A stretch of 64,000 bases of DNA from the NCBI RefSeq assembly GCF_900106805.1, contig NZ_FNNP01000004.1:62001-126000 (forward strand). Direction: 5' to 3'. This document shows positions 39,760-58,994 of this stretch, piece after piece. The DNA comes from Ruegeria halocynthiae. Lineage in GTDB: Bacteria; Pseudomonadota; Alphaproteobacteria; Rhodobacterales; Rhodobacteraceae. Position 1 is the first letter of the stretch, and the number at the start of each line of letters is the position of its first letter. The position numbers and the translations under genes were made by a program. The notes beneath the pieces were generated by a model, which was not told the origin of the DNA, made no database searches, and saw only the letters and a program-made list of their open reading frames with translations.

Positions 39760-40209
39760 ATGCGAGACGTCATGACAAAGAGCATGGCCCGCAATATATT
39801 TTATGGCGGGTCATTGTTCTTCATTCTAATCTTTCTGGCCCTATCGGCCCATTCCCATTGGTACATCGTCAATTCTGAGAACTCGGCGAAGCTTGATGAA
39901 AGTGTGGTTCGGGGCAAACACATCTGGGAAAAACACGCCTGTATCAACTGTCACACAATCATGGGTGAAGGTGCCTACTTTGCGCCCGAGCTTGCAAATG
40001 TGATGACACGTTGGGATGTCCTGGACGACCCGGAATCGGCCTTTGAATCCCTCAAGGGCTGGATGGAGGCGCAGCCAACCGGCATTCCCGGTCGCCGGCA
40101 GATGCCCAATTTCAACCTCAGCGACGACGAGATCCGTGATCTGGCGAACTTCCTGATCTGGACGGACAACATCGACGCTCAGGGCTGGCCGCCCAACGAG
40201 GCAGGCTGA
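39760..40209 (+). CDS. norC: NorC, nitric-oxide reductase cytochrome c subunit
   Basis: A 149-aa membrane-anchored cytochrome c: one N-terminal helix (about 14-30, FYGGSLFFILIFLALSA) and heme motif Cys61-X2-Cys64-His65 (HACINCHTIMGEGAYFAPEL). The axial Met is in GRRQMPNF. It feeds electrons to NorB. GGAGAG lies 4 bases upstream of ATG. The norB gene follows after 16 bases. Confidence 0.96.
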   Translation: MRDVMTKSMARNIFYGGSLFFILIFLALSAHSHWYIVNSENSAKLDESVVRGKHIWEKHACINCHTIMGEGAYFAPELANVMTRWDVLDDPESAFESLKGWMEAQPTGIPGRRQMPNFNLSDDEIRDLANFLIWTDNIDAQGWPPNEAG

Positions 40210-40225
40210 GAAAGGGAACGGAGCA

Positions 40226-41593: not shown

Positions 41594-42408
41594 TGGATAT
41601 GGATGGCTCCATACAACTGGGTAAGGGGGCGGCTGACGCCCCCTTCTACCTGCCCCAGGGCGACGAATGCGATGTGTTCGCCGCCGCTTATTCCAACAAC
41701 CTGCCGGTTCTGCTGAAAGGTCCGACGGGCTGTGGCAAGACGCGCTTTGTCGCCCACATGGCCGCCAGCCTTGGCCGCCCCCTTTACACCGTGGCTTGCC
41801 ACGACGATCTGGCCGCCGCCGACCTGATCGGCCGCTACCTGCTGAAGGGCGGAGAAACCGTCTGGGTCGATGGCCCCCTGACCCGCGCGGTGCGCGAAGG
41901 CGCGATCTGCTACCTCGACGAGGTGGTCGAAGCCCGCAAGGACGTCACCGTCGTGCTGCACCCGCTGACTGACGATCGGCGCATCCTGCCGATCGACCGC
42001 ACCGGCGAAGAGCTTGAGGCCGCGCCCGGTTTCATGCTGGTGGCCTCGTACAACCCCGGCTACCAGAACATACTGAAAACCCTGAAACCCTCGACCCGAC
42101 AGCGCTTTATCTCGCTGGAATTCGATTTCCCATCGCCCGAGATGGAGGCCGAAGTCGTCGCCCAGGAAAGCGGGCTGGCGCTGGAGCGCTGCAAGCCGCT
42201 TGTGCGGTTGGCGGGCAAACTGCGCGGGCTCAAGGGTCAGGATCTTGAGGAAGGCGTTTCCACTCGTCTGGTCGTCTATGCCGCGACGCTGATCGCACAA
42301 GGCATGTCCACCGACCGCGCCATCCTTGCCGCTATGATCGAGCCTCTGACAGATGATGAGGATATCAAACGCGGGCTCCTCGATCTTGTCACGGCTGTCT
42401 TTGGGTGA
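41593..42408 (+). CDS. norQ: NorQ, MoxR-type AAA+ ATPase
   Basis: A 271-aa AAA+ protein with Walker A GPTGCGKT at 43-50, Walker B AICYLDEVVEAR, and the sensor segment LVASYNPGYQ. With NorD it inserts the non-heme iron into NorB. ATG 41593 shares a base with the norB stop; a second in-frame ATG at 41599 is also possible. Confidence 0.94.
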   Translation: MDMDGSIQLGKGAADAPFYLPQGDECDVFAAAYSNNLPVLLKGPTGCGKTRFVAHMAASLGRPLYTVACHDDLAAADLIGRYLLKGGETVWVDGPLTRAVREGAICYLDEVVEARKDVTVVLHPLTDDRRILPIDRTGEELEAAPGFMLVASYNPGYQNILKTLKPSTRQRFISLEFDFPSPEMEAEVVAQESGLALERCKPLVRLAGKLRGLKGQDLEEGVSTRLVVYAATLIAQGMSTDRAILAAMIEPLTDDEDIKRGLLDLVTAVFG

Positions 42409-42417
42409 GGCCGGCCG

Positions 42418-44340: not shown

Positions 44341-44885
44341 GCGACACCTCTCTCATCGACGAGCTTCCGGGCGAGTTGCTGATGTGGGTGCTCATCATTT
44401 CCGAACTGCTGGTGTTCGGCGCGGGTCTGATCGCCTTCATGGGTGTCCGGCTGACGGATCCGGCAGGCTTTGCAGAGGCGCAGTCGCATCTTTATCGCAC
44501 AGGAGCCGCCTTCAACACGGCGGTGCTGGTAAGCTCGGGTTACCTCGCCGCGCTTGCCCTGTACTGGCGTCAGGCAGCACGTCGCGGCAAAGCACGTCTT
44601 GCACTGGTCGGGGCGGCGCTTCTGGGGTGTGTGTTCCTGATCATCAAGGGTGCCGAATACGCGGACAAGGCTGCGCAGGGGATCTCGTTCGAGTCCCACC
44701 CGTTTTTCATGTTCTATTACCTGCTGACCGGTTTTCACGCCGCCCATGTGCTGGCCGGGGTTGTTATCCTGCTATTCGTTGCCTGGCGCGATGATGCCCA
44801 CAACATCGAAGCGGGCGCCCAGTTCTGGCACATGGTTGATCTGGTCTGGATCATGCTGTTCCCCGTGATTTACCTGCTGGGATGA
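44337..44885 (+). CDS. norE: NorE, cytochrome-oxidase subunit III-like protein
   Basis: A 182-aa protein with five membrane helices. LPGELLMWVLIISELLVFGAG, GFHAAHVLAGVVIL and FWHMVDLVWIMLFPVIYLLG match the COX3 family. NorE is an accessory of nitric-oxide reductase, thought to help assembly or stability. It overlaps norD and norF by 4 bases each. Confidence 0.92.
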   Translation: MSDTSLIDELPGELLMWVLIISELLVFGAGLIAFMGVRLTDPAGFAEAQSHLYRTGAAFNTAVLVSSGYLAALALYWRQAARRGKARLALVGAALLGCVFLIIKGAEYADKAAQGISFESHPFFMFYYLLTGFHAAHVLAGVVILLFVAWRDDAHNIEAGAQFWHMVDLVWIMLFPVIYLLG

Positions 44886-45192: not shown

Positions 45193-46182
45193 TTAGTCAA
45201 CGTTGATCACACGACCCCGGACAAGCGACTCTGCGGCGGCGTCGGCCAGAACCTGCGCGCGCAACCCGTCCTCGATCCCGGGAGTGAGCGTCTCGGACCC
45301 ATCCACCGCGGTAACGAAATGCACCACTTCGGCGCGGTAGGCAGCCTCGTAGCGCTCCAGAAAGAAATGCTGCGCTGGGGCCTTGCGAAAGCCTGAGGGC
45401 GTGGCGATTTCGACCGTGTTCTCCAGCATGTTTTCTGCACGCAACATGCCTTTCTCGCCATGCACCTCGATGCGTTGGTCATAGCCATAGCTGGCGCGGC
45501 GCGAATTAGAGATCTGGCAGATCTTGCCGCTGGCCGTGGTCAGGGTGACGGCTGCGGTGTCGACGTCTCCGGCCTTGCCGATCTCAGGATCAACCAGCGA
45601 AGATCCAACTGCGTAGACGCTGATCGGTTCTTCACCCAGCAGGAAACGGGCCATATCCAGATCGTGGATCATCATATCGCGGAACAACCCACCCGAACTT
45701 TTGATGTAACTGATCGGTGGGGGGGACGGATCGCGCGACAGGATGGTGACGATCTCGACATTTCCGATTTCTCCGTTGGAGATTCGGGATTGGATGTTGG
45801 CAAAGTTGGGATCAAATCGTCGGTTGAAGGCAGTCATGAAGGGGATGCCTGCAGCCTCGACCACTTTGATGCAATCGCGGATACGGTCGGCAGACATGTC
45901 CACCGGTTTCTCACAGAAGATCGCTTTGCCCGCCCGCGCCGCCTGATGGATCAGGTCGAAATGGGTGTCGGTTGGGGTTCCGATGACCACCGCATCAACA
46001 TCCGCGCTTTCGATAAGGTCTTGTGCCGAGAGGACGTTTGCACCGGTTCTGTCGGCCAGCATTTGAGCTGGTTCCGCGAATGCGTCCGCTACTGCGCTAA
46101 CCCGCGCGCCGTCGATCTGCCCGATCGAGCGCGCATGAACCTGCCCGATACGTCCGCAGCCCAGTAAACCGATATTCAGCAT
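45193..46182 (-). CDS. iolG: IolG, myo-inositol 2-dehydrogenase
   Basis: A 329-aa Gfo/Idh/MocA oxidoreductase from ATG 46182 (MLNIGLLGCGRIGQVHARSI). It has the NAD fold GCGRIG at 8-13, the CEKPVD motif with catalytic Lys, and FNRRFDPNF, GGLFRDMMIHDLDMARF and the His of the catalytic HDxD segment. It oxidises myo-inositol to 2-keto-myo-inositol, the first catabolic step. It starts 1 base after the aldolase stop and is last in the iolD operon. A role on another inositol isomer is possible because two more paralogues are nearby. Confidence 0.87.
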   Translation of the reverse strand: MLNIGLLGCGRIGQVHARSIGQIDGARVSAVADAFAEPAQMLADRTGANVLSAQDLIESADVDAVVIGTPTDTHFDLIHQAARAGKAIFCEKPVDMSADRIRDCIKVVEAAGIPFMTAFNRRFDPNFANIQSRISNGEIGNVEIVTILSRDPSPPPISYIKSSGGLFRDMMIHDLDMARFLLGEEPISVYAVGSSLVDPEIGKAGDVDTAAVTLTTASGKICQISNSRRASYGYDQRIEVHGEKGMLRAENMLENTVEIATPSGFRKAPAQHFFLERYEAAYRAEVVHFVTAVDGSETLTPGIEDGLRAQVLADAAAESLVRGRVINVD

Positions 46183-46183
46183 C

Positions 46184-47014
46184 TCATGCCCCCTTGAAGG
46201 CTTGCAGAACCCGGCGTGTCGCCTCAACAACCGGCTCATGCGTTTCTTTCAGAATCTGTACGCGGTCAAAACGTTCGGGATCGGCATTCACTGCCGTTCT
46301 CAGCGCCTGACCAAAGGCCATGCGCAGTTCGGTTCCGATGTTGAATTTGCAGATTTTTGACCCGCGTGCCAGTGCCGTACGCTGTGCGACCGGAACACCC
46401 GACCCACCGTGGATAACCAGCGGAACCTGGGTCACGGCTTCGATGGCGCGGATGCGGGCCTGGTCCAGACCGCCTTCTTTGTCTTGTTGCAGATGCACGT
46501 TGCCGACCGAGATCGCCATCGCGTCGACGTCGGTCTCACTGGCGAACTGTGCTGCCTCATCCGGGTCGGTCCCGTCCGATCCTTCACCGCCGGAATAGCC
46601 GACAAAACCAATCTCGCCTTCGCAGGAAACGCCAGCGGCATGGGCCATCTCGGCAATCGCGGCCGTCTCAGCGATGTTCTGCGCCAATGCTTTGCGCGAG
46701 CCGTCGAACATGACCGAGGTGAAGCCGCTGTCGATGGCGGTCCGGCATTCCTCATGGGTGTAGCCATGGTCCAGATGGGCCACCACAGGAACGCTGGCCG
46801 CTTCGGCCAGATGGCGGAACATCTTGCCCAGAACCGGCAGTGGCGTGTGTTCACGACAGGACGGCCCGGCCTGCAGAATAACGGGCACGTCTTCGGCTTC
46901 GGCGGCGGCCACATAAGCGCGCATATCCTCCCAACCCAGCGTCACCAACCCGGCCACGGCATAACCGTCGCGCAGCGCGGGTTGCAGGACGTCCGATAAT
47001 GTCACAAGGCTCAT
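46184..47014 (-). CDS. iolJ: Class II aldolase (IolJ-like)
   Basis: A 276-aa zinc-dependent fructose-bisphosphate-aldolase-type enzyme. VAHLDHGYTHEE carries the catalytic Asp and zinc His, CEGEIGFVGYSGGEGSD and MAISVGNVH follow, and VIHGGSGVP and KFNIGTELR bind phosphate. In this operon it should cleave 2-deoxy-5-keto-gluconate 6-phosphate to dihydroxyacetone phosphate and malonic semialdehyde. It overlaps iolB by 4 bases. Confidence 0.85.
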   Translation of the reverse strand: MSLVTLSDVLQPALRDGYAVAGLVTLGWEDMRAYVAAAEAEDVPVILQAGPSCREHTPLPVLGKMFRHLAEAASVPVVAHLDHGYTHEECRTAIDSGFTSVMFDGSRKALAQNIAETAAIAEMAHAAGVSCEGEIGFVGYSGGEGSDGTDPDEAAQFASETDVDAMAISVGNVHLQQDKEGGLDQARIRAIEAVTQVPLVIHGGSGVPVAQRTALARGSKICKFNIGTELRMAFGQALRTAVNADPERFDRVQILKETHEPVVEATRRVLQAFKGA

Positions 47015-47868
47015 TTGAACTTGGCCACCATGTCCATAATGCCCGGAATAGTATGCAGTTGGGCTGCGTGGGTCGGTTGGAAATACTGTTTCAGAGAACG
47101 CTGGCTGAGGCCGCCGAGGATGGTGAAATAATACATCTCATAACCCGGCAAAACTGCACAGGGGTGATAACCCTTGTCGATCATGATGGTTGAGCCATCC
47201 ATGATGTGATAGGCATCGCCCGGTTTGTTGTCCTCGCGCTGCAGCATCTGAATGCCCGAGCCATAGTTGGGCCGAAAGCGGAAGTTATAGGTCTCGTCAT
47301 GGCGGGTCTCGATCATCTCGCCATCGTCGCCTTTGCGGTCGGTGTCGTGCTTGTGGCTTGGAAAACCGGACCAGCCGCCCTGACCGACGGTGTAAAGCTC
47401 GGACACCAGAAGGCGGCCCACTTTGTCGTGATGGTTCGCACCGAGGATGTGTTTGATCTTGCGATGGGTTTTTGTGTCGTCCGAGCCATATTGTACCAGA
47501 TCCAGCTCGGGCACGCGGACATCAAAGGGTTCGAGTACGCGGTCGAACTTCGCGCCTGCGATGAAGGTTTCGGTTTCGTTCGTTACGCAGGTGATGCGGA
47601 CCTTGGCACCCACGGGCACATAGACACCCTCGGGATCGCCATCCCAAACGTCGATAGTGCGGTTGCCCAATTTGGAATAAACTGCACCATCCACGTCTAC
47701 TTCGACGGTGCCGGTGGCGGGTACGATGCAGGTCTCATATCCGGGCACCGCATATTCGAACACCTCGCCCTTCTTCAGTTTGACGATGTTGAAATAGTTC
47801 AGCGGTACCAGATCATGGTCGGCATCGACGATGGGTTTGTTCTGGTTGTCATGGGGCGCGATATGCAT
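47011..47868 (-). CDS. iolB: IolB, 5-deoxy-glucuronate isomerase
   Basis: A 285-aa bicupin protein converting 5-deoxy-glucuronate to 2-deoxy-5-keto-gluconate. The second cupin has the metal motif FPSHKHDTDR with acidic and His ligands, followed by ETYNFRFRPNYGSGIQML and KGYHPCAVLPGYEMYYFTIL, typical of IolB. It lies 12 bases after iolC. Confidence 0.93.
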   Translation of the reverse strand: MHIAPHDNQNKPIVDADHDLVPLNYFNIVKLKKGEVFEYAVPGYETCIVPATGTVEVDVDGAVYSKLGNRTIDVWDGDPEGVYVPVGAKVRITCVTNETETFIAGAKFDRVLEPFDVRVPELDLVQYGSDDTKTHRKIKHILGANHHDKVGRLLVSELYTVGQGGWSGFPSHKHDTDRKGDDGEMIETRHDETYNFRFRPNYGSGIQMLQREDNKPGDAYHIMDGSTIMIDKGYHPCAVLPGYEMYYFTILGGLSQRSLKQYFQPTHAAQLHTIPGIMDMVAKFK

Positions 47869-47880
47869 CTGCGTCTCCTT

Positions 47881-48858
47881 TCAGGTATCCGTTGGACCCG
47901 GGTGTTGGGCCAGAAAGTCGTCAAGTTCAGGCGTGGTGGGCATGGCCCCGGCGCAGCCGGGCTTCGAGACGACAATGGACGCGCAGGCCGACCCGCGCAG
48001 TACCGCGCCGCGCATATCATGTCCCGCTGCGATCGAGGCCAACAGACCGGCCAGAAAACTGTCGCCGGCACCGTTGGGCTTCACCGCGGTGACCGGGTAG
48101 ATGCCGGTGCGGATTTCTTGCCCATCGGTCAAGGTAATGGCCCCTTCGTGGCCCATCTTGTAGATCACCATTTTGCCTTTGGCGGCCAGCTCGCGGGCTT
48201 TGTCCAAACCCTTTTCGATGCCGCCTGCCATAAAGCCAAACTCTTCGTCATTGCCGACGATCAGGTCGCTTTCGTTGCCTGCACGGGTCAGGACCTCTGA
48301 GGCGATTTGCGGCGACGGCCAGCTATAGGGGCGGTAATCAATATCGAATATGACAGGCAGGCCAGCAGCGCGGGCGTTTTCAAACGCGCGGAACGTGGCG
48401 GAACGCGAAGGCTCTGCCGCAAATACCGTTCCCGCCGTGATCAGGGCAGAGAACGCGCTGTAGTCTACCGCATCCATGTCCGCCCCGGTCACCTGAAAAT
48501 CGGCGGCGCCGTTGCGGTAGATGACGTTCTGGAAATCCTCGATGCAGCTTTCGTATACGGCCAAGGATGTACGCGCCTCGCCACCCACAGCGCGGACATA
48601 TTGCGTTTCCACGCCATAATCCTGCAGTCTGTTCACGCAGAATCGTCCCACCGCATCATCCGAGACGGATGTGACCAAAGCCGCTTGCGACCCAAGTTTT
48701 ACCAGCCCGGCACAAATATTGGCGCTCGATCCGCCCAGATCGGCGCGAAACTCTATTGCGTCCTCGCTTTTGGTCCCGATGGGGTTGGCGAACATGTCCA
48801 TACCGGCCCGGCCAAACACGGCGAAGCGGTTGCCTTTTATGCCTTCGATCAGAGTCAC
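47881..48858 (-). CDS. iolC: IolC, 5-dehydro-2-deoxygluconokinase
   Basis: A 325-aa PfkB-family kinase. The start is GTG 48858 (VTLIEGIKGNRFAVFGRAG), which overlaps the dioxygenase stop as GTGA; the longer frame upstream is antisense-like sequence within that gene. LGGSSANICAGL and the anion hole with catalytic Asp in PNGAGDSFLAGLL are clear. It phosphorylates 2-deoxy-5-keto-gluconate at C6. Confidence 0.92.
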   Translation of the reverse strand: MTLIEGIKGNRFAVFGRAGMDMFANPIGTKSEDAIEFRADLGGSSANICAGLVKLGSQAALVTSVSDDAVGRFCVNRLQDYGVETQYVRAVGGEARTSLAVYESCIEDFQNVIYRNGAADFQVTGADMDAVDYSAFSALITAGTVFAAEPSRSATFRAFENARAAGLPVIFDIDYRPYSWPSPQIASEVLTRAGNESDLIVGNDEEFGFMAGGIEKGLDKARELAAKGKMVIYKMGHEGAITLTDGQEIRTGIYPVTAVKPNGAGDSFLAGLLASIAAGHDMRGAVLRGSACASIVVSKPGCAGAMPTTPELDDFLAQHPGPTDT

Positions 48859-49694
48859 GTGCGCCCCTCGGTATTGCCTGCCCGCGCAGTATCCAGCACC
48901 TCGGGATAGGGATAATTCAAACCCAGCAATTGCCGTATATCGGGGCTCGCCCGATCGAGGAATTCCTGTGGCAGCGCGGCGGGCATATCTTCCATCGGTT
49001 TGACCCATTTGGGCAGGTATTGGATCAGGATCGCGCTGCGGTCGTGATCGGCCTTGTTCGGCATCGCACAATGCCATGTCACGCCATAGAACAACGCGAC
49101 ATCACCGGGCTCACCGGTCATCTGCGCGCAGTTTTCATAGAACTTATCTTCGGGGGTCGGATAGCGCAGCTCTTTCTGCGATCCCGGCACATAGCCGGTC
49201 GCGCCGCTTTCTTGGGTGAATGGGTCCAGCAGGACCGAGACTTGCGCGTTCATCGGGAATGACCCGTTCAGGCCGACAGGATGCGTTTCGGGGCTGTGAA
49301 AGTCCCAATAGGGATAGTCTACATGGGGTTCTTGCCCCGGACCGCCCGGCAAGATGCGGTTGGCGGCGATCGAACCCATGATGAACTCGGTCCCCAAAAA
49401 TTTCCGCAGAATCTTCATCAGAACCGGATGCGCGGCCATGCGGCAAAACACGTCGCCCTTCGCCAACAGGTTCCAGACCCGTCGTTGCAGGCTCAGTTTG
49501 CCATCTTCTTCAGCCGCCCCCTGAAAGTGGGTCACCTTCTCGGCAGCTTCCTCGGAATGTTCCATGACGATGGCTCGGGCCTCGGCGATTTCCTCGGGTG
49601 TAAACAGGCCCGAGATGCCAACAGCTCCGCCGCCGTTCAGCAGTTCATTGACGATGACGTCAGGATCGGCTGTTTCTGCTGTAAACCGTTTCAT
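48855..49694 (-). CDS. Phytanoyl-CoA dioxygenase-family protein within the iol operon
   Basis: A 279-aa Fe(II)/2-oxoglutarate dioxygenase-like protein. The metal facial triad is His124-X-Asp126 (PHVDYPYW) and His208 (GVTWHCAMP), and Arg219 (KADHDRSA) suits 2-oxoglutarate binding. It lies between iolD (TAATG overlap) and iolC (GTGA overlap), so it is fully translationally coupled with inositol catabolism. It is not part of the standard pathway. Oxidative removal of a substituent from a modified inositol, such as an O-methyl group, is one possibility; this is inference. Confidence 0.87.
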   Translation of the reverse strand: MKRFTAETADPDVIVNELLNGGGAVGISGLFTPEEIAEARAIVMEHSEEAAEKVTHFQGAAEEDGKLSLQRRVWNLLAKGDVFCRMAAHPVLMKILRKFLGTEFIMGSIAANRILPGGPGQEPHVDYPYWDFHSPETHPVGLNGSFPMNAQVSVLLDPFTQESGATGYVPGSQKELRYPTPEDKFYENCAQMTGEPGDVALFYGVTWHCAMPNKADHDRSAILIQYLPKWVKPMEDMPAALPQEFLDRASPDIRQLLGLNYPYPEVLDTARAGNTEGRT

Positions 49695-51562
49695 TATATG
49701 CCCTTACGCTGTTTTTCGCGGGTGGTTTCCCACTCGACATGCGCGTTGCGCACGTTTTCATCCGCCGAGGTGTGGGGCGTTCCGACCTCCCACCACGTAT
49801 GGCCTTCAGTGGTCCAGCCGTCATAGGCGTCCACATCCATTACGATCACATAGGTCTTGTCGCTGGCTTTGGCGCGCTTGAACGCTTCGGCCAGTTCTGC
49901 CGGGTTCGCGACCTTTTCGCTGGTGGCACCCATCGAGGCCGCGTGTGCCGTGAAATCAACGCCGAACGGTTCCGGGATCGTCGGGCAGTCTGCCAGCAGG
50001 TTGTTGAAGCTCTCATTGCCTGTATTGTTTTGCAGCTTGTTGATAACGGCAAAGCCACCGTTATCCAGCACCAGTACGATCATCTTCTTGCGGCTCAGGA
50101 CCGAGGAATAGATGTCCGAGTTCAGCATCATGTAAGAACCGTCACCGCAGAAGGTGATGGTGTCCTTGTCGGGTTCCCGCTCGGACTGGGCGATGCGCGC
50201 GCCCCAGGCGCCCGCGATCTCGTAGCCCATGCAGGAAAAGCCGAACTCGACATCAACCGTGCCGATATCCAGTGTGCGCCAGTTGGCGGTGACCTCGGCT
50301 GGAAGTCCCCCGGCAGCAGCGACCACCCGGTCGCGCGTGTCGCAAAGCTCGTTCACCACGCCGATGGCCTGAGCGTAGGAATTCGGGCGGTTTCCGTGGG
50401 ACACATTCTCGGCCACATAGGCATCCCACTTGCGCCGTTCCTCTTGCGCCAGCGAGAGCCAATCTGATGAGGCGGTATAGTCAATTGCCTGTGTTAGAGC
50501 CCGGATCGACTTTTTTGCATCCCCAACAACCGGCAGAGACATGTGCTTGCCTGCATCATGGCGTGCCGCATTGATCGAGATGAACTGAGCGTCCTTGGCA
50601 AAAGCGGTCCATGAACCGGTGGTGAAATCCTGCAACCGAGTTCCTACAGCGACAATCACGTCCGCTTGCTCGGCAATCGCATTGGCACTGTCCGATCCGG
50701 TGACACCGATTGGACCGATATTCAGCGGATGAGTCGCCAGCATATTGGCGCGCCCTGCGATGGTTTCGACCACTGGGATCTGATGCTTTTCGGCAAAGTT
50801 GGTCAGTTCGGTGACAGCTTTGGAATACTGAACACCGCCACCTGCAATAATCATTGGGCGCTTCGCGCCTGCAATCGCGGCAGCCGCATCGGCGATTTCA
50901 TCCGCATCAGGCGATTGGCGGCGAATGCGATGCACTTTCTTTTCAAAGAACTTCACAGGATAGTCATAGGTCCACCCCTGCACGTCCTGCGGTAGACCGA
51001 GGAAAGCAGGCCCGCAATCGCCCGGGTCCAGCATTGTCGCGATTGCGGCGGGAAGAGACTGAATCACTTGCGCCGGATGCGTGATGCGATCCCAGTATCG
51101 GCTGACCGGCTTGAACGCGTCATTTACGCCAAAGGTTGGATCGTTGTAGTTCTCCATCTGCTGCAGAACCGGGTCAGGCAGACGGGTGATGAACGTATCG
51201 CCGCACAGCATAAGCATCGGCAGGCGGTTGGCATGGGCCAGTCCGGCCGCGGTCAGCAGATTCGCAGTGCCGGGCCCCGCGCTGGCGGTGCAGAACATAA
51301 ATCGCTGGCGCAGCCATTGCTTGGCATAGCCTGCTGCGGCGAATCCCATGCTCTGTTCATTCTGCCCTCGATACAGCGGCAGCTCCTCCCGGACCGAATT
51401 CAGCGCCTCACCCAGACAGGTCACATTGCCATGGCCGAAAATCCCGAAACCGCCGCCACATAGGCGATATTCCTGTCCATCGATCTCTATGAACTGGTTT
51501 GACAGCCAGCGAATGATCGCCTGCGCCGTTGTCATGTAAACGGTGTCGTGTTGCGCGGACAT
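49694..51562 (-). CDS. iolD: IolD, TPP-dependent THcHDO hydrolase
   Basis: A 622-aa thiamine-diphosphate enzyme from ATG 51562 (MSAQHDTVYMTTAQAIIRWL), with GGAG 9 bases upstream; the open frame extends further through the operator. The three acetolactate-synthase-like domains are visible: ELPLYRGQNEQSMGFAAAGY (catalytic Glu region), the central NAD/FAD-like fold, and the TPP motif GDGSYMMLNSDIYSSV to VLDN. It opens the ring of trihydroxycyclohexane-1,2-dione to 5-deoxy-glucuronate. It is the first gene of the minus iol operon. Confidence 0.95.
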   Translation of the reverse strand: MSAQHDTVYMTTAQAIIRWLSNQFIEIDGQEYRLCGGGFGIFGHGNVTCLGEALNSVREELPLYRGQNEQSMGFAAAGYAKQWLRQRFMFCTASAGPGTANLLTAAGLAHANRLPMLMLCGDTFITRLPDPVLQQMENYNDPTFGVNDAFKPVSRYWDRITHPAQVIQSLPAAIATMLDPGDCGPAFLGLPQDVQGWTYDYPVKFFEKKVHRIRRQSPDADEIADAAAAIAGAKRPMIIAGGGVQYSKAVTELTNFAEKHQIPVVETIAGRANMLATHPLNIGPIGVTGSDSANAIAEQADVIVAVGTRLQDFTTGSWTAFAKDAQFISINAARHDAGKHMSLPVVGDAKKSIRALTQAIDYTASSDWLSLAQEERRKWDAYVAENVSHGNRPNSYAQAIGVVNELCDTRDRVVAAAGGLPAEVTANWRTLDIGTVDVEFGFSCMGYEIAGAWGARIAQSEREPDKDTITFCGDGSYMMLNSDIYSSVLSRKKMIVLVLDNGGFAVINKLQNNTGNESFNNLLADCPTIPEPFGVDFTAHAASMGATSEKVANPAELAEAFKRAKASDKTYVIVMDVDAYDGWTTEGHTWWEVGTPHTSADENVRNAHVEWETTREKQRKGI

Positions 51563-51639: not shown

Positions 51640-51657
51640 TTTGCAACCGGTTGCAAA
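51640..51657. promoter_or_regulatory. LacI-type operator, iolD / Gfo-Idh divergent region
   Basis: TTTGCAACCGGTTGCAAA is a perfect 18-bp palindrome with a central CG, the hallmark of LacI-family operators. It lies 78 bases before iolD and 35 bases before the plus dehydrogenase gene, and can control both. The same core recurs at 55938-55957. Confidence 0.85.
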
Positions 51658-51691: not shown

Positions 51692-52795
51692 ATGGCAGAA
51701 ATCGGTATTGGCATTCTGGGCGGCGGATATATGGGCAAGGCCCATGCGGTCGCCATGTCCTCGGTCGGGGCGGTGTTCAACACTGCCTTGCGCCCGCGGT
51801 TAGAGATGGTGTGCGCGTCCTCACCGGAAAGCGCTGATCGATACCGTCAGGCCTATGGTTTCGCCCGTTCGACTGATGATTGGCGTGTGCTGGTGAATGA
51901 CCCGAGGGTCGAGGCCATCGTGATCGCCACGCCTCAGGAAACGCATCGCGAGATCGCACTGGCGGCCTTTGCGCTGGGCAAGCCAGTTTTGTGCGAAAAG
52001 CCCTTGGGGGCGTCGATGGAAGATGGTGCCACCATGGTGGCCGCAGCGTCGGAATCAGGTCTGCCGAATATGGTTGGTTTCAACTATATTCGCACGCCCG
52101 CCAGCCAACACGCCCGCCGGTTGATCGCCGAAGGAGAGATCGGCGATATCACATGGTTTCGGGGCGAACACACGGAAGACTTCTATGCTGATCCACAGGC
52201 CCCCGCGACCTGGCGCACGACGGGAATGTCCAACGGGACAATGGGTGATCTGGCGCCGCATATGATCAATGCCGCGCTGGCGTTGATCGGGCCTATCACG
52301 CGCGTGATGGCCGAGGTTGAAACGGTTCACAAAAGCCGTCCGGGTGGTGAGGTGGACAATGATGATCACGCCCAGATGATGGTGCGCTTTGCAAACGGGG
52401 CGATGGGATCAATGTATTTCAGCCGCATCGCGACCGGGCGCAAGATGGGTTACGCGTATGAGATCAGCGGAACCAAAGGCGCGATCCGCTTTGATCAGGA
52501 AGATCAGAACGCCCTGTGGCTTTACCGCATGGATGGGCCTGAGGCCGAGCGTGGATTTCGCAAAATCCTGACCGGCCCGGCGCATCCCGATTATGAGCCG
52601 TTTTGCCAAGGCCCCGGCCATGGCACGGGCTATCAGGATCAGATTATCATCGAAGCGCGGGATTTCCTGCGCGCGATCGAAACTGGAAAACCGGTTTGGC
52701 CGACCTTCCGCGACGGGCACGAGGTCAACCGGATCGTTGCTGCGGCGCTGTCGTCGTCGGAGGATGAAAATTGGAAAAACATCGAAGATTTCTGA
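51692..52795 (+). CDS. Gfo/Idh/MocA-family inositol-type dehydrogenase
   Basis: A 367-aa NAD(P)-dependent oxidoreductase from ATG 51692, with GGAGGAGG before it. GGGYMGKAHA (10-19) forms the Rossmann fold, CEKPLG supplies the catalytic Lys, and GDLAPHMINAAL is the substrate-binding His segment. Typical length. In an inositol locus it probably acts on an inositol stereoisomer or ketoinositol (scyllo- or chiro-type), but specificity cannot be read from sequence. It is the first gene of the plus operon. Confidence 0.88.
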   Translation: MAEIGIGILGGGYMGKAHAVAMSSVGAVFNTALRPRLEMVCASSPESADRYRQAYGFARSTDDWRVLVNDPRVEAIVIATPQETHREIALAAFALGKPVLCEKPLGASMEDGATMVAAASESGLPNMVGFNYIRTPASQHARRLIAEGEIGDITWFRGEHTEDFYADPQAPATWRTTGMSNGTMGDLAPHMINAALALIGPITRVMAEVETVHKSRPGGEVDNDDHAQMMVRFANGAMGSMYFSRIATGRKMGYAYEISGTKGAIRFDQEDQNALWLYRMDGPEAERGFRKILTGPAHPDYEPFCQGPGHGTGYQDQIIIEARDFLRAIETGKPVWPTFRDGHEVNRIVAAALSSSEDENWKNIEDF

Positions 52796-52814
52796 GCATC
52801 GGAGACAAGACAAG

Positions 52815-53708
52815 ATGAGCATCAGAATTGGCAATGCGCCCTGTTCCTGGGGCGTGGAATTTGCGCAGGATCCGCGCAATCCGCATTGGAAAACCGTCCT
52901 CAGCGATTGTGCCGAGGCGGGGTATAAGGGTATCGAATTGGGCCCGGTGGGGTTCATGCCCGAGGACCCTGCGGTTCTGGCCGATGCGCTGACCGAGCAT
53001 GATCTGGAACTGATCGGTGGTGTGGTGTTCCGCAACTATCACGACCCGGATGCGTGGGAAGATGTGCTCGATGCCACTCATCGCACCGCGCGCGCATTGA
53101 AAGCACATGGGGCGCAGCATCTGGTGCTGATCGATGCAATCTCACCCCGTCGCGCACCCACAGCTGGCCGCGCTGATGAGGCAGAACAGATGGATAAGGT
53201 CGAGTGGACGGCCTATCGCGACCGGATCACCGAAAGCGCACGCATCGGGTCCGAGGAATATGGGCTGACGGTGGGCATGCACGCCCATGCGGCAGGTTTC
53301 ATGGACTTTGAACCTGAACTTATCCGTCTGCTGGAAGAGGTTGATGAAAACCTGCTGAAAATCTGCTTCGATACCGGGCATCACTCTTATGCAGGGTTCG
53401 ATCCGGTTGGCTTCATGCAGCGTTACGTTGACCGGATCTCGTATATGCACTTCAAGGACATCTCACCGACGGTGAAGGCGGATGTCATCGCCAATCGGAC
53501 AGGTTTCTACGATGCCTGCGGGCAGGGGATTTTCTGCAATCTGGGTGAAGGCGACGTGGACTTCCCGTCGGTCCGTCAGGTGCTTCTGGATGCAGGCTTC
53601 ACCGGTTGGTGTACGGTTGAGCAGGATTGCGACCCAACGCTTGATCCCGATCCTGTAGGCGATGCGCGGAAGAATCGCGAATACCTTGAATCCATTGGTT
53701 TCAATTGA
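52815..53708 (+). CDS. iolE: IolE, myo-inosose-2 dehydratase
   Basis: A 297-aa TIM-barrel protein from ATG 52815 (MSIRIGNAPCSWGVEF); the frame runs further upstream inside the preceding gene. IolE hallmarks are GYKGIELGPVGFMPED, HAHAAGFMDF, CFDTGHHSYAGFDP, YMHFKDI, and GEGDVDFPSV. It dehydrates 2-keto-myo-inositol to trihydroxycyclohexane-1,2-dione using a divalent metal. It lies 19 bases after the dehydrogenase gene and 12 bases before the next. Confidence 0.94.
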   Translation: MSIRIGNAPCSWGVEFAQDPRNPHWKTVLSDCAEAGYKGIELGPVGFMPEDPAVLADALTEHDLELIGGVVFRNYHDPDAWEDVLDATHRTARALKAHGAQHLVLIDAISPRRAPTAGRADEAEQMDKVEWTAYRDRITESARIGSEEYGLTVGMHAHAAGFMDFEPELIRLLEEVDENLLKICFDTGHHSYAGFDPVGFMQRYVDRISYMHFKDISPTVKADVIANRTGFYDACGQGIFCNLGEGDVDFPSVRQVLLDAGFTGWCTVEQDCDPTLDPDPVGDARKNREYLESIGFN

Positions 53709-53720
53709 GGAGGCCAGACC

Positions 53721-54854
53721 ATGACCAAGCTGAAATGGGGCATGATCGGTGGCGGCGAAGGCAGCCAGATCGGACCGGCGCACCGTCTGGGCGCGCTGGC
53801 GGACGGGCACTTCGAATTCACCGCCGGAGCGCTGGATCACAGGCCTGATGCCGGTCGCGAGTATGCGCAACGGTTGGGCATCGCGGCGGACCGTGCCTAT
53901 GGCGATTGGACCGAGATGTTGGCCGGTGAGCGTGGTCGCGACGACCGGATAGATCTGGTCACGGTGGCGACACCAAACGCGACACATTTCGAGATTACTA
54001 AGGCCTTCCTTGAGGCAGGCTTTAACGTGCTGTGCGAAAAGCCCATGACCATGACCGTGGAAGAGGGCGAAGAGATCGTCAAAGTCGCCGAGAAATCCGG
54101 GAAGATTTGCGCGGTAAACTATTGCTATTCGGCCTACCCGATGGTGCGGCAGGCCCGGGCAATGGTACGCGCAGGTGAATTAGGCAAGGTTCGCTTGGTC
54201 GTCACCAATTTCAGTCACGGCCATCACGGCGATGCGACAGATGCCGACAATCCACGCGTGCGCTGGCGTTATGATCCTGCGATGGCGGGCGTCTCCGGGC
54301 AGTTCGCGGATTGTGGTATTCATGCAATGCACATGGCCGGGTTCATTGCCGATGACGAGGTTGAAACCCTGTCAGCAGATTTCGCATCAACCATCGGCAG
54401 CCGTGAGTTGGAAGATGATGCAATGGTCAATTTTCGGACTCAAAAAGGCGCGGTCGGTCGGCTCTGGACGTCCTCGGTGGCCATCGGTCGCCAGCATGGG
54501 TTCGATATTCAGGTGTTCGGAGAAACCGGTGGTCTGCGCTGGGCGTCAGAGCAGCCGAACCAATTGATATATACACCCGTTGGTGGGCGCGTGCAGATCA
54601 TCGAGAAGGGTGAAGGCGGTTTGCACGAAGAAGCGCAGCGCCTCAGCCGTGTTGCCATTGCGCATCCCGAAGGGTTCCCTCTGGCGGTTGCCAATATCTA
54701 TTGCGATCTGGCAGATGCGATTACAGGTGAAACCCGCGACGGGCTGCCCAATGCCGCAGACGGCGTGCGGTCGATGGCGGCGGTGCACACTGCGGTCGAA
54801 TCTGCAAAACGGGGCAGCGCATGGATGGATGCGCGGCCGCCGATGTTCCGTTAA
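53721..54854 (+). CDS. Gfo/Idh/MocA-family dehydrogenase
   Basis: A 377-aa oxidoreductase with GGGEGSQIGPAHRL at 10-23 (a longer glycine loop than the other two paralogues), CEKPMTM, FSHGHHGD, and SGQFADCGIHAMHMAGF. The GxEGSxIGxxHR loop marks a distinct subfamily that I recall next to iolE in several proteobacteria. The activity is probably on a ketoinositol or related cyclitol. It ends 2 bases before the stop of the convergent LacI gene. Confidence 0.87.
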   Translation: MTKLKWGMIGGGEGSQIGPAHRLGALADGHFEFTAGALDHRPDAGREYAQRLGIAADRAYGDWTEMLAGERGRDDRIDLVTVATPNATHFEITKAFLEAGFNVLCEKPMTMTVEEGEEIVKVAEKSGKICAVNYCYSAYPMVRQARAMVRAGELGKVRLVVTNFSHGHHGDATDADNPRVRWRYDPAMAGVSGQFADCGIHAMHMAGFIADDEVETLSADFASTIGSRELEDDAMVNFRTQKGAVGRLWTSSVAIGRQHGFDIQVFGETGGLRWASEQPNQLIYTPVGGRVQIIEKGEGGLHEEAQRLSRVAIAHPEGFPLAVANIYCDLADAITGETRDGLPNAADGVRSMAAVHTAVESAKRGSAWMDARPPMFR

Positions 54855-54856
54855 CT

Positions 54857-55855
54857 TTAAGCGACGGGGCGCAACGTGCCCCGTTCCACAACCGAGCATG
54901 GGAAAATCCGAGCCTCAGGGTATCGGTCGGGTTCGTTCAGCGTTGCCACCATCAATTCGATCGACGAACTGACGATCTGGCGGATCGGCTGGTGAATGGT
55001 GGTGAGATCGATATTCTCCCACCGCGCCATTTCCATGTCATTCAGGCCGATTATGCCGATATCTTCGGGCACGTTCAGGCCGCTGTCCAGAATTGCGGAC
55101 AAAACCCCGATGGACAACACGTCATCTCCGCAGAAATAGGCATCGGCCCGTTTAGATTGCAGCAATCGCAGCATTTCCCGGCGACCTGCATCGAACGAAT
55201 ATGCATCGGCAAACGAGCAGTTCACCCCGATATGTGGGTGCTGCTCCATTTCCGACATAAAACCCGCATGGCGATCCTGCGTTGATGTGGCGGCCTCGGG
55301 GCCGCCAAGGAAGGCCACCTTGTCATACCCGCGTGTAACCAGTTCACGCGCCGCCATGCGTCCGCATTCCACGTTGTCGATCCCCACCACATGCACCTGT
55401 GGCGACGAAGAGGACCGGCCAAAACTGTGAACCACCGGCACCCCTGCATCGCGAAAAGCTTTGGCAAAACCCGGCGGCAAAGTCGAAGACGCCACCACTA
55501 CGCCATCAACCGAATACTGACGCAGCATCCGGACCGAGTTTTCCGGGTCTACCTCATCTGTCAGGTTCACCAGCAACGGGCGCAGACCCCGGTCTTGCAG
55601 TCCCCGGGTGAAAAGGTCGAAAACTTCCAGAAAAATAGGGTTGTGAAAGTTGTTCGACACCAGCCCAATGAGTTTGGTCCGCCCTGTCGTCAGCGATGAT
55701 GCCAGCGCGTTAGGGCTGTATCCAAGCTCTCGCGCGGCCTTTTCGACCTTGCGGCGCATTTTGTCAGAAACCGAGGCCCCATCCGTGAAAGTGCGCGACA
55801 CTGCGGACCGGGATACCCCCGCGCGTTCTGCAACCTCTTTCAATGTGACAGCCAT
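54857..55855 (-). CDS. LacI-family repressor of the inositol locus
   Basis: A 332-aa regulator. The N-terminal helix-turn-helix (VTLKEVAERAGVSRSAVSRTF, residues 3-23) and hinge (KVEKAARELGYSPNALASSL) are followed by a periplasmic-binding-protein-like domain (TKLIGLVSNNFHNPIF, GVVVASSTLPPGF, VAFLGGPEA). It is divergent from the ABC transporter; the palindrome at 55938-55957 lies 83 bases before its start. It likely represses transport and iol genes until inositol or a catabolite binds. Confidence 0.92.
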   Translation of the reverse strand: MAVTLKEVAERAGVSRSAVSRTFTDGASVSDKMRRKVEKAARELGYSPNALASSLTTGRTKLIGLVSNNFHNPIFLEVFDLFTRGLQDRGLRPLLVNLTDEVDPENSVRMLRQYSVDGVVVASSTLPPGFAKAFRDAGVPVVHSFGRSSSSPQVHVVGIDNVECGRMAARELVTRGYDKVAFLGGPEAATSTQDRHAGFMSEMEQHPHIGVNCSFADAYSFDAGRREMLRLLQSKRADAYFCGDDVLSIGVLSAILDSGLNVPEDIGIIGLNDMEMARWENIDLTTIHQPIRQIVSSSIELMVATLNEPDRYPEARIFPCSVVERGTLRPVA

Positions 55856-55937: not shown

Positions 55938-55957
55938 TTTTGCAACCGGTTGCAAAA
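55938..55957. promoter_or_regulatory. LacI-type operator, lacI / ABC transporter region
   Basis: TTTTGCAACCGGTTGCAAAA, a perfect 20-bp palindrome with a central CG, lies between the LacI gene and the binding-protein gene. It shares an 18-bp core with the site at 51640-51657, so one regulator plausibly governs all four flanking transcription units. Confidence 0.87.
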
Positions 55958-56042: not shown

Positions 56043-56993
56043 ATGACTTCACTGACGAAGAAGCTGGCGCTGGCCGCTGTCGTCGCAGCGTCGCCGCTGA
56101 TCGCAGCCACGAGCGCTGCGGCAGAGGGTGAGAAATATATTCTGGTTAGCCACGCACCAGATAGCGATAGCTGGTGGAATACCATCAAGAACGGCATCGC
56201 GCTGGCAGGCGATCAGATGGGTGTCGAGGTTGAGTATCGCAACCCGCCCACAGGCGATCTTGCCGATATGGCGCGGATCATAGATCAGGCGGCTGCCTCG
56301 GGTCCAAACGGGATCATCACGACGCTGGCCGACTATGACGTGCTGAGCGGTCCGATCAAATCGGCCGTGGATTCGGGTATTGACGTGATCATCATGAACA
56401 CCGGGACCCCGGATCAGGCGCGCGAAGTTGGGGCGCTGATGTATGTCGGTCAGCCCGAATATGATGCGGGATACGCTGCGGGTGTACGGGCCAAAGGTGA
56501 CGGAATCGGCTCGTTCCTGTGCGTGAACCACTATATCGTACAGCCTTCCAGCCAAGAGCGATGCCAGGGTTTCGCGGATGGTTTGGGGATCGAACTGGGT
56601 GATCAGATGATTGACGCCGGTCAGGACCCCGCCGAAATCAAGAACCGCGTCCTGGCCTATTTGTCGGCGAACCCGGATACCCAAGCGGTTCTGACATTGG
56701 GCCCAACATCTGCTGACCCGACCATTCTGGCACTCGAAGAAAATGGCATGGCCGGTGACATCTATTTCGGCACATTCGATCTGGGTGGCGAAATCGTCAA
56801 AGGCATCAAATCCGGCGTGATCCAGTGGGGCATCGATCAACAGCCCTTCCTGCAGGCCTACCTGCCGGTTGTTGTTATGACCAACTACCACCGCTATGGT
56901 GTTCTGCCCGGCAACAACATCAACTCGGGCCCCGGATTTGTAACCGCTGACGGTCTGACAAAAATCGAAGAATTTGCTGGCGAGTACCGCTAA
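56043..56993 (+). CDS. ABC transporter sugar/inositol-binding protein
   Basis: A 316-aa periplasmic binding protein from ATG 56043, with GGAGG 6 bases upstream. Signal peptide (KKLALAAVVAASPLIAATSAAA). The mature part is a type I binding fold (YILVSHAPDSDSWWNTIKNG, MARIIDQAAASGPNGIITT, VIIMNTGTP). Trp-rich and Asp residues near the N-terminus suit a polyol or sugar. In this context myo-inositol (IbpA-like) is the likeliest ligand. A strong intercistronic stem-loop follows, fitting high expression of the binding protein. Confidence 0.9.
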   Translation: MTSLTKKLALAAVVAASPLIAATSAAAEGEKYILVSHAPDSDSWWNTIKNGIALAGDQMGVEVEYRNPPTGDLADMARIIDQAAASGPNGIITTLADYDVLSGPIKSAVDSGIDVIIMNTGTPDQAREVGALMYVGQPEYDAGYAAGVRAKGDGIGSFLCVNHYIVQPSSQERCQGFADGLGIELGDQMIDAGQDPAEIKNRVLAYLSANPDTQAVLTLGPTSADPTILALEENGMAGDIYFGTFDLGGEIVKGIKSGVIQWGIDQQPFLQAYLPVVVMTNYHRYGVLPGNNINSGPGFVTADGLTKIEEFAGEYR

Positions 56994-57079: not shown

Positions 57080-58204
57080 ATGAGCGAGTCTGCTCAAAAC
57101 TCGGCTGTAACCGACGAACGGATCAAAGAGATTTCTCCGCTGCGCAAGGCGATGATCCGACCGGAACTTGGCGGAATGGTCGGCACGGTTGCCGTGTTCA
57201 CCTTTTTCCTGCTCTTTGCTTTCGACAGCGGAATGTTCAACGCACAGGGCATGATGAACTGGTCGGTTGTATCGGCTCAATTCATGATTATCGCGGTCGG
57301 GGCGTGCCTTTTGATGATCGCGGGTGAGTTTGACCTGTCTGTCGGATCGATGATCGGTTTCTCTGGCATGATGATCGCAATATTCTCGGTCACGCTGGCC
57401 TGGCCGGTCTGGATGGCCATTATCGTCACCTTTGCGATGGCCGTTGCGATTGGCGCATTGAATGGCTGGATCGTGGTTCGCACGGGGCTGCCCAGCTTTA
57501 TCGTGACATTGGCCTTTTTGTTCATTTTGCGGGGATTCACGATCTTTCTGCCGCAGGTCATCGAACGCAAAACGATCATCGGTGGCGTAAAAGACGTGGC
57601 TGAAGGCGACTGGCTGGCGCCAATCTTTGGGGGCAAGGTACTTCAGGGACTGTTCAGTTGGTTAGGTGATGCAGGAGTTATCGCGGTGTTCGAACGCGGT
57701 ACGCGCCAGGGTCAGCCTGTTGTCGATGGTATCCCGATGCTGATCGTCTGGGCCATTGCGCTGGTTATCTTTGGTCATGTGCTGCTGACCAAAACCAAGT
57801 TCGGCAACTGGATTTTTGCGTCTGGCGGTGATGCCGAGGCTGCCCGAAATTCGGGTGTCCCTGTGAGCAGGGTTAAGATCCTGATGTTCATGTTCACCGC
57901 CTTCTGCGCCACTGTATTCGCGGTCTGTCAAGTTATGGAGTTTGGTTCCGCCGGGGCCGACCGTGGCTTGTTGAAGGAATTCGAGGCGATCATCGCGGTT
58001 GTCATTGGTGGTGCGCTTCTAACCGGAGGATATGGCTCGGTTCTGGGGGCTGCGCTGGGCGCGTTGATCTTTGGCGTGGTACAGCAGGGCCTGTTCTTTG
58101 CAGGTGTCGAAAGCTCACTGTTCCGGGTGTTCCTGGGTGTGATCCTTTTGGGCGCTGTGATCCTCAACACCTATATCCGCCGCATCATCACAGGGGAGCG
58201 TTGA
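57080..58204 (+). CDS. ABC transporter permease (inositol/sugar)
   Basis: A 374-aa BPD-type permease of the ribose/inositol class, with about 8-10 hydrophobic helices. Family signatures are MIIAVGACLLMIAGEFDLSVGSMIGFSG, NGWIVVRTGLPSFIVTLAFLFILRG, and the ATPase-contact loop AARNSGVPVSRVKI. An unusual insertion of about 50 residues lies between LFSWL and VDGIPMLI. The gene is followed after 1 base by the ATPase gene. Confidence 0.92.
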   Translation: MSESAQNSAVTDERIKEISPLRKAMIRPELGGMVGTVAVFTFFLLFAFDSGMFNAQGMMNWSVVSAQFMIIAVGACLLMIAGEFDLSVGSMIGFSGMMIAIFSVTLAWPVWMAIIVTFAMAVAIGALNGWIVVRTGLPSFIVTLAFLFILRGFTIFLPQVIERKTIIGGVKDVAEGDWLAPIFGGKVLQGLFSWLGDAGVIAVFERGTRQGQPVVDGIPMLIVWAIALVIFGHVLLTKTKFGNWIFASGGDAEAARNSGVPVSRVKILMFMFTAFCATVFAVCQVMEFGSAGADRGLLKEFEAIIAVVIGGALLTGGYGSVLGAALGALIFGVVQQGLFFAGVESSLFRVFLGVILLGAVILNTYIRRIITGER

Positions 58205-58205
58205 T

Positions 58206-58994
58206 ATGAATCCCGAACATGCACCCATCATCCAGATGAAAAACATCGAAAAGCACTTTGGCAGCGTGATCGCGTTGGCAGGCGTGTCCGTAGATGTTTT
58301 CCCGGGCGAGTGTCACTGTCTTCTTGGCGACAACGGCGCTGGCAAATCAACCTTTATCAAAACCATGTCGGGTGTTCATCAACCCACTCATGGTGAGATT
58401 CTGTTCGAAGGTAAACCGATGCATTTCGCGGATCCGCGTGATGCAATCGAAGCCGGGATCGCAACCGTGCATCAGCATCTGGCGATGATCCCGCTGATGT
58501 CGGTCTCTCGTAATTTCTTCATGGGTAATGAGCCTGTTAAGAAAGTCGGGCCTATCCAGCTTTTCGATCATGATTATGCCAACAAGATCACGATGGAAGA
58601 AATGAAGAAGATGGGCATCAACCTGCGCGGACCCGATCAGGCGGTTGGCACGTTATCGGGCGGTGAGCGCCAAACGGTCGCCATTGCGCGTGCTGTGCAT
58701 TTCGGGGCCAAGGTGCTGATCTTGGATGAGCCGACCTCAGCCCTTGGTGTGCGCCAAACAGCCAACGTGCTGGCCACCATCGACAAGGTGCGCAAGCAGG
58801 GCATTGCGGTTGTCTTCATCACCCACAACGTCCGACACGCGCTGGCGGTAGGGGATCGGTTCACGGTTCTGAACCGGGGCCAGACGCTGGGTACGGCGCA
58901 GCGCGGACAGATCACCCCGGAAGAGCTGCAGGACCTAATGGCCGGCGGACAGGAGATGGTTGCACTGGAAGGAAGCTTGGGCGGAACCGTCTGA
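58206..58994 (+). CDS. ABC transporter ATPase (inositol/sugar)
   Basis: A 262-aa single-domain ATPase: Walker A GDNGAGKST (41-49), signature TLSGGERQTVAIARA, Walker B KVLILDEPTSAL and the His switch FITHNVRHA. Most sugar transporters of this class have a 500-aa double ATPase; this one is the short FrcA-like type acting as a homodimer. Its 3' third overlaps an antisense open frame from the DUF3833 gene. Confidence 0.93.
   Translation: MNPEHAPIIQMKNIEKHFGSVIALAGVSVDVFPGECHCLLGDNGAGKSTFIKTMSGVHQPTHGEILFEGKPMHFADPRDAIEAGIATVHQHLAMIPLMSVSRNFFMGNEPVKKVGPIQLFDHDYANKITMEEMKKMGINLRGPDQAVGTLSGGERQTVAIARAVHFGAKVLILDEPTSALGVRQTANVLATIDKVRKQGIAVVFITHNVRHALAVGDRFTVLNRGQTLGTAQRGQITPEELQDLMAGGQEMVALEGSLGGTV

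What the first reader, a model, noticed from the sequence alone, without database searches (positions are those of the whole stretch)
48855..49694. Fe(II)/2-oxoglutarate dioxygenase-like gene locked inside the inositol catabolic operon
The gene overlaps iolD (TAATG) and iolC (GTGA), keeps the His-X-Asp...His triad and the Arg for 2-oxoglutarate, and has no role in the known pathway. It may feed modified inositols (for example O-methyl-inositols abundant in marine algae and plants) into the pathway by oxidative demethylation.
Basis: partly seen in the sequence, partly recalled or inferred. Interest (0 to 1): 0.75.

Follow-up and report, generated by a model that had tools for sequence, protein, structure and literature searches.

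The report
Accessory oxygenase in inositol-degradation operon
A bacterial inositol-degradation operon carries an extra iron-dependent oxygenase that many otherwise matching operons lack, and its gene company suggests that it converts a chemically modified inositol, perhaps a methylated one, into something the pathway can use.

Summary
Window 48855-49694 (minus) is a 279-aa PhyH-fold Fe(II)/2-oxoglutarate oxygenase overlapping iolD (TAATG) and iolC (GTGA). H124, D126, H208 and R219 are invariant in 44 of 44 aligned sequences.

It belongs to a discrete, rare family (52-94% identity). Of 80 loci kept, 56 lie in the inositol operon; 10 (Luteibacter, Inquilinus type) have only a scyllo-inositol-dehydrogenase-like gene (GFO1) beside it, 9 of them with a LacI-type gene nearby; 13 are Burkholderiales, 7 with mocDEF-like genes nearby; one is an actinobacterial inositol operon.

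It is accessory: 100 of 108 family genomes with the window-type iolB lack it, and in 43 of 77 such clusters examined iolD abuts iolC (0-86 bp). A palindrome, TTGCAACCGGTTGCAA, occurs twice in the whole genome, at both cluster promoters; a sister palindrome is the only such site in 5 of 5 Luteibacter/Inquilinus genomes searched, in the shared PhyH/GFO1 promoter.

Best reading: a separately regulated entry enzyme turning a modified cyclitol into an inositol-pathway substrate, most likely by oxidative O-demethylation. The entry role is fairly well supported; demethylation is inferred and the substrate unknown.

The parts
48855..49694 (-). PhyH-fold Fe(II)/2-oxoglutarate oxygenase gene (the finding)
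   Evidence: ORF; Pfam PhyH; invariant H124, D126, H208, R219; AF2 model pLDDT 85.5, pTM 0.87, Foldseek to 2OG oxygenases
49694..51562 (-). iolD, start taken at MSAQHDTV (longest ORF runs to 51745)
   Evidence: TIGR04377 797.8 bits over cut-off
47881..48858 (-). iolC, GTG start
   Evidence: TIGR04382 301.1 bits, cut-off 300
47011..47868 (-). iolB-like isomerase
   Evidence: Pfam KduI/IolB; TIGR04378 145.2 bits, below cut-off 205
46184..47014 (-). class II aldolase, iolJ-like by position (name from recall)
   Evidence: Pfam F_bP_aldolase
45193..46239 (-). iolG inositol 2-dehydrogenase
   Evidence: TIGR04380 431.9 bits over cut-off
51641..51656 (.). Perfect palindrome TTGCAACCGGTTGCAA, proposed LacI-type operator in the GFO1/iolD divergent promoter
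   Evidence: only 2 sites in the genome at up to 1 mismatch
51692..52795 (+). GFO1, scyllo-inositol-dehydrogenase-like
   Evidence: best solved relative 5ya8, 311 bits; beside PhyH outside iol clusters
52803..53708 (+). IolE-like TIM barrel
   Evidence: TIGR04379 178.5 bits, below cut-off 290; 3cny IolE
53721..54854 (+). GFO2, Gfo/Idh/MocA dehydrogenase
54857..55855 (-). LacI-family regulator
   Evidence: Pfam LacI
55940..55955 (.). Second copy of the palindrome, LacI/transporter promoter
56043..56993 (+). ABC substrate-binding protein (ORF from 55935; start at MTSLTKK likely)
   Evidence: only NCBIfam match at E 1e-20 is NF052284 rhizopine SBP, 270 bits, below cut-off 420
57080..58204 (+). 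sugar-type ABC permease
   Evidence: NCBIfam permease matches, all below cut-off
58206..58994 (+). ABC ATPase, read from sequence motifs only
   Evidence: ORF; no family search run on it

Best explanation
The gene encodes a Fe(II)/2-oxoglutarate oxygenase that serves as an accessory, separately regulated entry step to inositol catabolism. It uses O2 and 2-oxoglutarate to convert a modified cyclitol, most likely an O-methyl inositol, into a free inositol or inosose plus succinate and CO2 (plus formaldehyde if it demethylates). A partner dehydrogenase (GFO1, or an SDR in many Burkholderiales loci) and the iol enzymes then take the product to central metabolism. Shown by sequence: fold, conserved catalytic residues, operon position, accessory distribution, partner gene, shared palindrome. 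Inferred: that the enzyme is active, that LacI binds the palindrome, that the substrate is a modified cyclitol (about 0.75), and that the chemistry is O-demethylation (about 0.45).
For: Catalytic residues invariant in 44 of 44 aligned sequences in a confident 2OG-oxygenase fold. Of 80 loci: 56 in the iol operon; 10 with GFO1, 9 of these also with a LacI-type gene (L072 begins inside GFO1); 13 Burkholderiales; 1 actinobacterial operon with iolE-, iolB- and iolG-like genes. IolD is present in 23 of 23 genomes tested of the 25 loci outside the alphaproteobacterial iol operon: 22 over cut-off, 1 in two contig fragments; L072 and L083 were not tested. In the family sample all 8 PhyH genomes (the window's own among them) lie among the 108 of 295 with the window-type iolB (Fisher p 0.0003, genomes not independent). 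GFO1 and a Luteibacter counterpart both match scyllo-inositol dehydrogenase best. The motif TTGCAA-N4-TTGCAA is in the GFO1 promoter of 48 of 51 PhyH+ and 56 of 67 PhyH- clusters and 10 of 10 Luteibacter/Inquilinus-type loci; its form there is the only such site in 5 of 5 genomes searched. mocDEF-like genes lie near PhyH in 7 of 13 Burkholderiales loci, in 6 of them 303-342 bp away and divergent, in L084 4.6 kb away. MocE-family ferredoxins lie within 15 kb of iolD or window-type iolB in 16 of 67 family genomes that have them, about 1.1 hits expected (the 15-kb limit was set after I had seen the coordinates). 2OG enzymes can O-demethylate (T6ODM, CODM; passages of PMC4191161).
Against: No substrate evidence of any kind. 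mocDEF-like genes and PhyH occur together in Burkholderiales, so they are not mere substitutes there; one of the two must do something else or act on another position. mocDEF as an O-demethylase is itself a model, and that role is from recall: only the title of Bahar 1998 and citing passages were seen. The same GFO1, IolE-like and LacI genes and the same palindrome occur in clusters without PhyH, so the regulator's ligand need not be the PhyH substrate. No formaldehyde-handling gene was noticed next to PhyH, but none was searched for. In the 10 Luteibacter/Inquilinus-type loci the window's transporter genes have no counterpart in the stretch held.
Confidence: 0.5

Rival explanations
1. PhyH hydroxylates a deoxy-inositol (quercitol or viburnitol type), giving an inositol directly without formaldehyde.
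For: Plain hydroxylation is the commonest 2OG-oxygenase chemistry (established knowledge); the product would feed GFO1 and the iol genes equally well.
Against: No independent pointer to deoxy-inositols; the mocDEF association points rather to rhizopine-like, O-methylated or aminated cyclitols.
Confidence: 0.13
2. PhyH oxidatively deaminates an amino-inositol (scyllo-inosamine or rhizopine type) to the inosose, like the kanamycin B dioxygenase KanJ (its chemistry is from recall).
For: Kanamycin B dioxygenase is a weak sequence match (E 0.014). The window's SBP has the rhizopine-binding family as its only NCBIfam match at E 1e-20 (270 bits, below cut-off 420). With mocDEF-like genes present in Burkholderiales, demethylation and deamination could be divided between the two enzymes.
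Against: The KanJ match is weak and KanJ is not among the 50 best Foldseek hits shown. The SBP of a plain Luteibacter iol operon matches the same rhizopine family (224 bits), so the match is not specific.
Confidence: 0.14
3. PhyH acts on an inositol stereoisomer or on a pathway intermediate (ring C-H oxidation, epimerisation or repair of a dead-end product) rather than on a substituted cyclitol.
For: In the iol operons it sits between iolD and iolC (55 of 56 loci; L030 is cut before iolD), and 54 of 55 PhyH+ clusters have a local iolD against 43 of 77 without PhyH. The regulator and palindrome are shared with PhyH- clusters.
Against: In Luteibacter and Inquilinus it is away from iolD and iolC and sits with GFO1, which fits an entry step better than a mid-pathway step.
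Confidence: 0.13
4. A passenger gene with no tie to the pathway.
For: Present in only 8 of 295 family genomes and patchy on the IolB tree.
Against: Tight overlaps in most iol-operon loci, low dN/dS, recurrence with inositol genes in Alpha-, Gamma- and actinobacterial loci, private palindrome.
Confidence: 0.03

Closest known systems
PhyH (phytanoyl-CoA dioxygenase) superfamily, e.g. SptF, TlxJ, AndA, DhiD
   Same: Fold, HxD...H and Arg; TM 0.69-0.77 by query and 17-23% identity among the best 50 Foldseek hits
   Different: Those are natural-product enzymes (most of them fungal, from recall); this is a separate bacterial family found with inositol genes
Rhizopine catabolism moc genes (mocB, mocA, mocC, mocDEF) plus iol
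   Same: Cyclitol SBP family, Gfo/Idh/MocA dehydrogenases and an oxygenase joined to the inositol pathway
   Different: Here a 2OG enzyme instead of a ferredoxin oxygenase; no MocE-family match in the window's genome at E 1e-36; SBP below the rhizopine cut-off
T6ODM and CODM, 2OG O-demethylases of opium poppy
   Same: 2OG-driven O-demethylation, if the best reading is right
   Different: Plant alkaloid enzymes; PhyH is the only Pfam family that our protein matches at E 0.001
KanJ kanamycin B dioxygenase
   Same: 2OG enzyme acting on an aminocyclitol antibiotic (recalled)
   Different: Weak match only (E 0.014)

Membership tests
PhyH Pfam family PF05721 | Score over gathering cut-off | tested here: met
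   78.5 bits against 22
Fe(II)/2-oxoglutarate oxygenases | HxD...H metal triad and distal Arg, conserved | tested here: met
   Invariant in 44 of 44 aligned sequences; aligned with solved enzymes
Fe(II)/2-oxoglutarate oxygenases | O2- and 2OG-dependent turnover | not testable with these tools
   Needs enzyme assay
Core myo-inositol pathway enzymes | Present whenever the operon is | tested here: not met
   Lacking in 100 of 108 family genomes with window-type iolB; 77 of those clusters examined
Rhizopine MocDEF-type oxygenase | FA-desaturase-like oxygenase with MocE ferredoxin and reductase | tested here: not met
   PhyH fold; no MocE-family match at E 1e-36 in own genome
Rhizopine SBP NF052284 (transport partner) | Score over 420 bits | tested here: not met
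   270.3 bits
2OG O-demethylases of the T6ODM/CODM type | Sequence membership of that family | tested here: inconclusive
   PhyH is the only Pfam match at E 0.001, but no direct comparison with T6ODM or CODM was run
2OG O-demethylases (by activity) | Release of formaldehyde from an O-methyl substrate | not testable with these tools
   Needs assay

The most novel reading that the evidence does not exclude
A so far undescribed family of bacterial 2OG oxygenases that, with one scyllo-inositol-dehydrogenase-like enzyme under a dedicated LacI-type repressor, forms a mobile two-gene module making O-methyl (or amino) inositols usable: a single-enzyme counterpart of the rhizopine mocDEF oxygenase that slots precisely between iolD and iolC.
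Probability: 0.4. Interest if true: 0.75.

Novelty: new variant of a known kind. Interest (0 to 1): 0.6.

Why it matters
O-methyl inositols are abundant plant solutes: pinitol was the most concentrated component of Mimosa root exudate in PMC5789663 (passages). In my ten paper searches no listed paper's title or abstract start, and no passage I opened, names a bacterial demethylase for them or a PhyH gene in an inositol operon. The library is partial and searches listed only 20 of 6,519, 25 of 925 and 15 of 38 papers. This family offers a concrete, easily tested candidate, with natural presence/absence pairs of otherwise matching operons and a private predicted operator for finding the inducer.

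Tried and rejected
Rejected: passenger gene (conserved company and purifying selection); phage gene (no stretch of viral contigs matched the six peptide patterns; no PHROG at E 0.001); core pathway enzyme. The plasmid search gave 102 records, all below 60% identity, the 40 listed at 25-32%, so no close plasmid kin. A clear-cut either/or between PhyH and mocDE was considered: MocD-like genes lie near 7 of 77 PhyH- and 0 of 55 PhyH+ clusters (one-sided p 0.02, rows related). It is not upheld: one of the 8 PhyH genomes (G184) has a MocE ferredoxin elsewhere and 7 Burkholderiales loci have both. PhyH on the IolB tree: 27 changes by parsimony, 7 forced by starred branches (131 rows; L029 and L049 dropped as too short; 63 of 128 inner branches open), so patchy, but gains and losses are not separated. 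The 55 PhyH+ and 77 PhyH- clusters were gathered in different ways, so their ratio is no prevalence; the prevalence is 8 of 108. Two papers that came up for PhyH plus inositol (PMC6637203, PMC11582366; passages) did not bear on the question.

Full report
Observation. The ORF, its strand and its overlaps are as described. It scores as PhyH (78.5 bits, cut-off 22) with no NCBIfam model over cut-off. Its relatives among solved structures are 2OG oxygenases such as TlxJ, DhiD, AndA and SptF (best E 1.7e-8), with which the HxD, distal His and Arg line up. An AlphaFold2 model from a 44-sequence alignment (pLDDT 85.5, pTM 0.87; residues 130-133 and 273-279 under 50) matches the same group (TM 0.69-0.77 among the best 50). 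H124, D126, H208 and R219 are invariant in 44 of 44 aligned sequences.

Surroundings. Minus strand: iolD, phyH, iolC, iolB-like, class II aldolase, iolG. Plus strand, divergent: GFO1, IolE-like, GFO2; then LacI on the minus strand and an ABC transporter on the plus strand. iolB-like and IolE-like fall below their equivalog cut-offs. GFO1's best solved relative is a scyllo-inositol dehydrogenase (311 bits). The SBP's only NCBIfam match at E 1e-20 is the rhizopine SBP family, below cut-off; the SBP of a plain Luteibacter iol operon matches it too.

Family and contexts. One scan of genome contigs gave 93 relatives, of which the best 80 were kept, 52-94% identical. In plasmids all 102 records are below 60% and the 40 listed are 25-32%, so the family looks discrete. 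It is rare: 8 of 295 genomes in the family sample at E 1e-40 and 3 of 398 in the phylum sample at E 1e-30, the window's own genome counted in both. The 80 loci sort as follows: 56 in the iol operon (55 with iolD and iolC on either side; L030 is cut before iolD); 10 in Inquilinus- and Luteibacter-type genomes with GFO1 divergent, 9 of these with a LacI-type gene nearby (next to GFO1 in Luteibacter, about 1.4 kb off in Inquilinus), while L072 begins inside GFO1; 13 Burkholderiales; and 1 actinobacterial operon (L088) with IolE-, SBP-, permease-, ATPase-, Cgl0159-, IolB-, GFO-, SDR- and IolG-like genes. Of the 13 Burkholderiales loci, 7 have a MocD-like, MocE-family and ferredoxin-reductase set: 6 divergent from PhyH at 303-342 bp, L084 4.6 kb away (the MocE of L082 has 127 bits against a cut-off of 136). 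Eight have the SDR, and 3 (L077, L078, L081) have neither in the stretch held. IolD was sought in 23 of the 25 genomes of loci outside the alphaproteobacterial iol operon (L072 and L083 left out) and found in 23: 22 over cut-off and one in two fragments. The background rate in those taxa was not measured; in the window's own family it is 151 of 295.

Accessory status. The window-type iolB occurs in 108 of 295 family genomes, including all 8 with PhyH (Fisher p 0.0003, genomes not independent). So 100 of 108 lack it; I fetched 77 of those clusters. In 43 of the 77, iolD lies 0-86 bp from iolC; in 34 no iolD over 60% identity was found, and where GFO1 and iolC could be placed (27 of 34) they are 106-237 bp apart, with no room for it. 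In 54 of 55 PhyH+ clusters iolD is present. On the IolB tree the PhyH label is patchy (27 changes, 7 forced by well-supported branches).

Regulation. A perfect 16-bp palindrome lies in the GFO1/iolD promoter (51641-51656) and the LacI/transporter promoter (55940-55955) and nowhere else in the 4.24-Mb genome at up to one mismatch. In the window at up to three mismatches 2 sites were found against 0.42 expected, and 7 of 100 shuffles reached 2; both sites are exact. A sister palindrome is the single site in 5 of 5 Luteibacter/Inquilinus genomes searched, in the shared promoter of PhyH and GFO1. Over loci with a readable GFO1 promoter, TTGCAA-N4-TTGCAA is in 48 of 51 PhyH+, 56 of 67 PhyH- and 10 of 10 Luteibacter/Inquilinus-type loci. 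That the LacI protein binds it is inferred. In the Luteibacter and Inquilinus genomes looked at, the iol genes lie on other contigs, so PhyH and GFO1 look like a separately switched entry module there. Since PhyH- clusters share regulator and palindrome, the regulator's ligand may be a cyclitol common to both.

Mechanism. An enzyme that is kept with only a dehydrogenase partner, in genomes that have the inositol pathway elsewhere, should make an inositol or inosose. The moc precedent (an oxygenase joined to iol for rhizopine; passages of PMC5789663 and PMC10107442; its O-demethylating role is from recall, and PMC5132102, passages, calls the function of mocDEF in Pseudomonas syringae unclear) and the linkage of MocE-family genes to iol clusters in 16 of 67 family genomes, about 1.1 hits expected, make a substituted cyclitol likely. 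O-demethylation is my first choice because O-methyl inositols are common and 2OG enzymes are known to do it. The joint presence of mocDEF-like genes and PhyH in Burkholderiales is the main result against simple equivalence and keeps deamination and hydroxylation alive.

Novelty. No paper found in my searches describes this gene (calls listed under Why it matters). The fold and the general chemistry are known; the family, its place and its regulation look new. I rate it a new variant of a known kind.

Noticed in passing
window 39760-44885: ORFs read by eye as a nitric oxide reductase cluster (norC, norB, norQ, norD, norE-like); no search was run on them.
   Followed up: no
L118 (G000:C30:25000-44000): The genome has a second inositol-type operon: iolD (797.5 bits), a full-scoring iolE (381 bits), an SDR, an ABC transporter, an aldehyde dehydrogenase, an HpcH aldolase and a GFO dehydrogenase; no hit to the window's iolB or iolC in that stretch.
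   Followed up: partly
34 PhyH- clusters, L139 to L201: 34 of 77 PhyH- window-type clusters have no iolD over 60% identity between GFO1 and iolC; some have a more distant iolD nearby (e.g. L139, L154, L166).
   Followed up: partly
L130, L158, L163, L168, L174, L177, L179: MocD-like genes, 5 of 7 with a MocE-like ferredoxin, lie near PhyH- clusters; in L174 a PanB-like gene (below cut-off) follows MocE, and L177 has a similar-looking ORF there.
   Followed up: partly
L059: Record titled Mycobacterium sp. KBS0706 carries a locus with the same gene order as Inquilinus loci; probably a mislabelled genome.
   Followed up: no
L077:8675-9790: Neighbour of PhyH in Caballeronia matches Pfam's TcdA/TcdB glycosyltransferase domain (85 bits); named only.
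   Followed up: no
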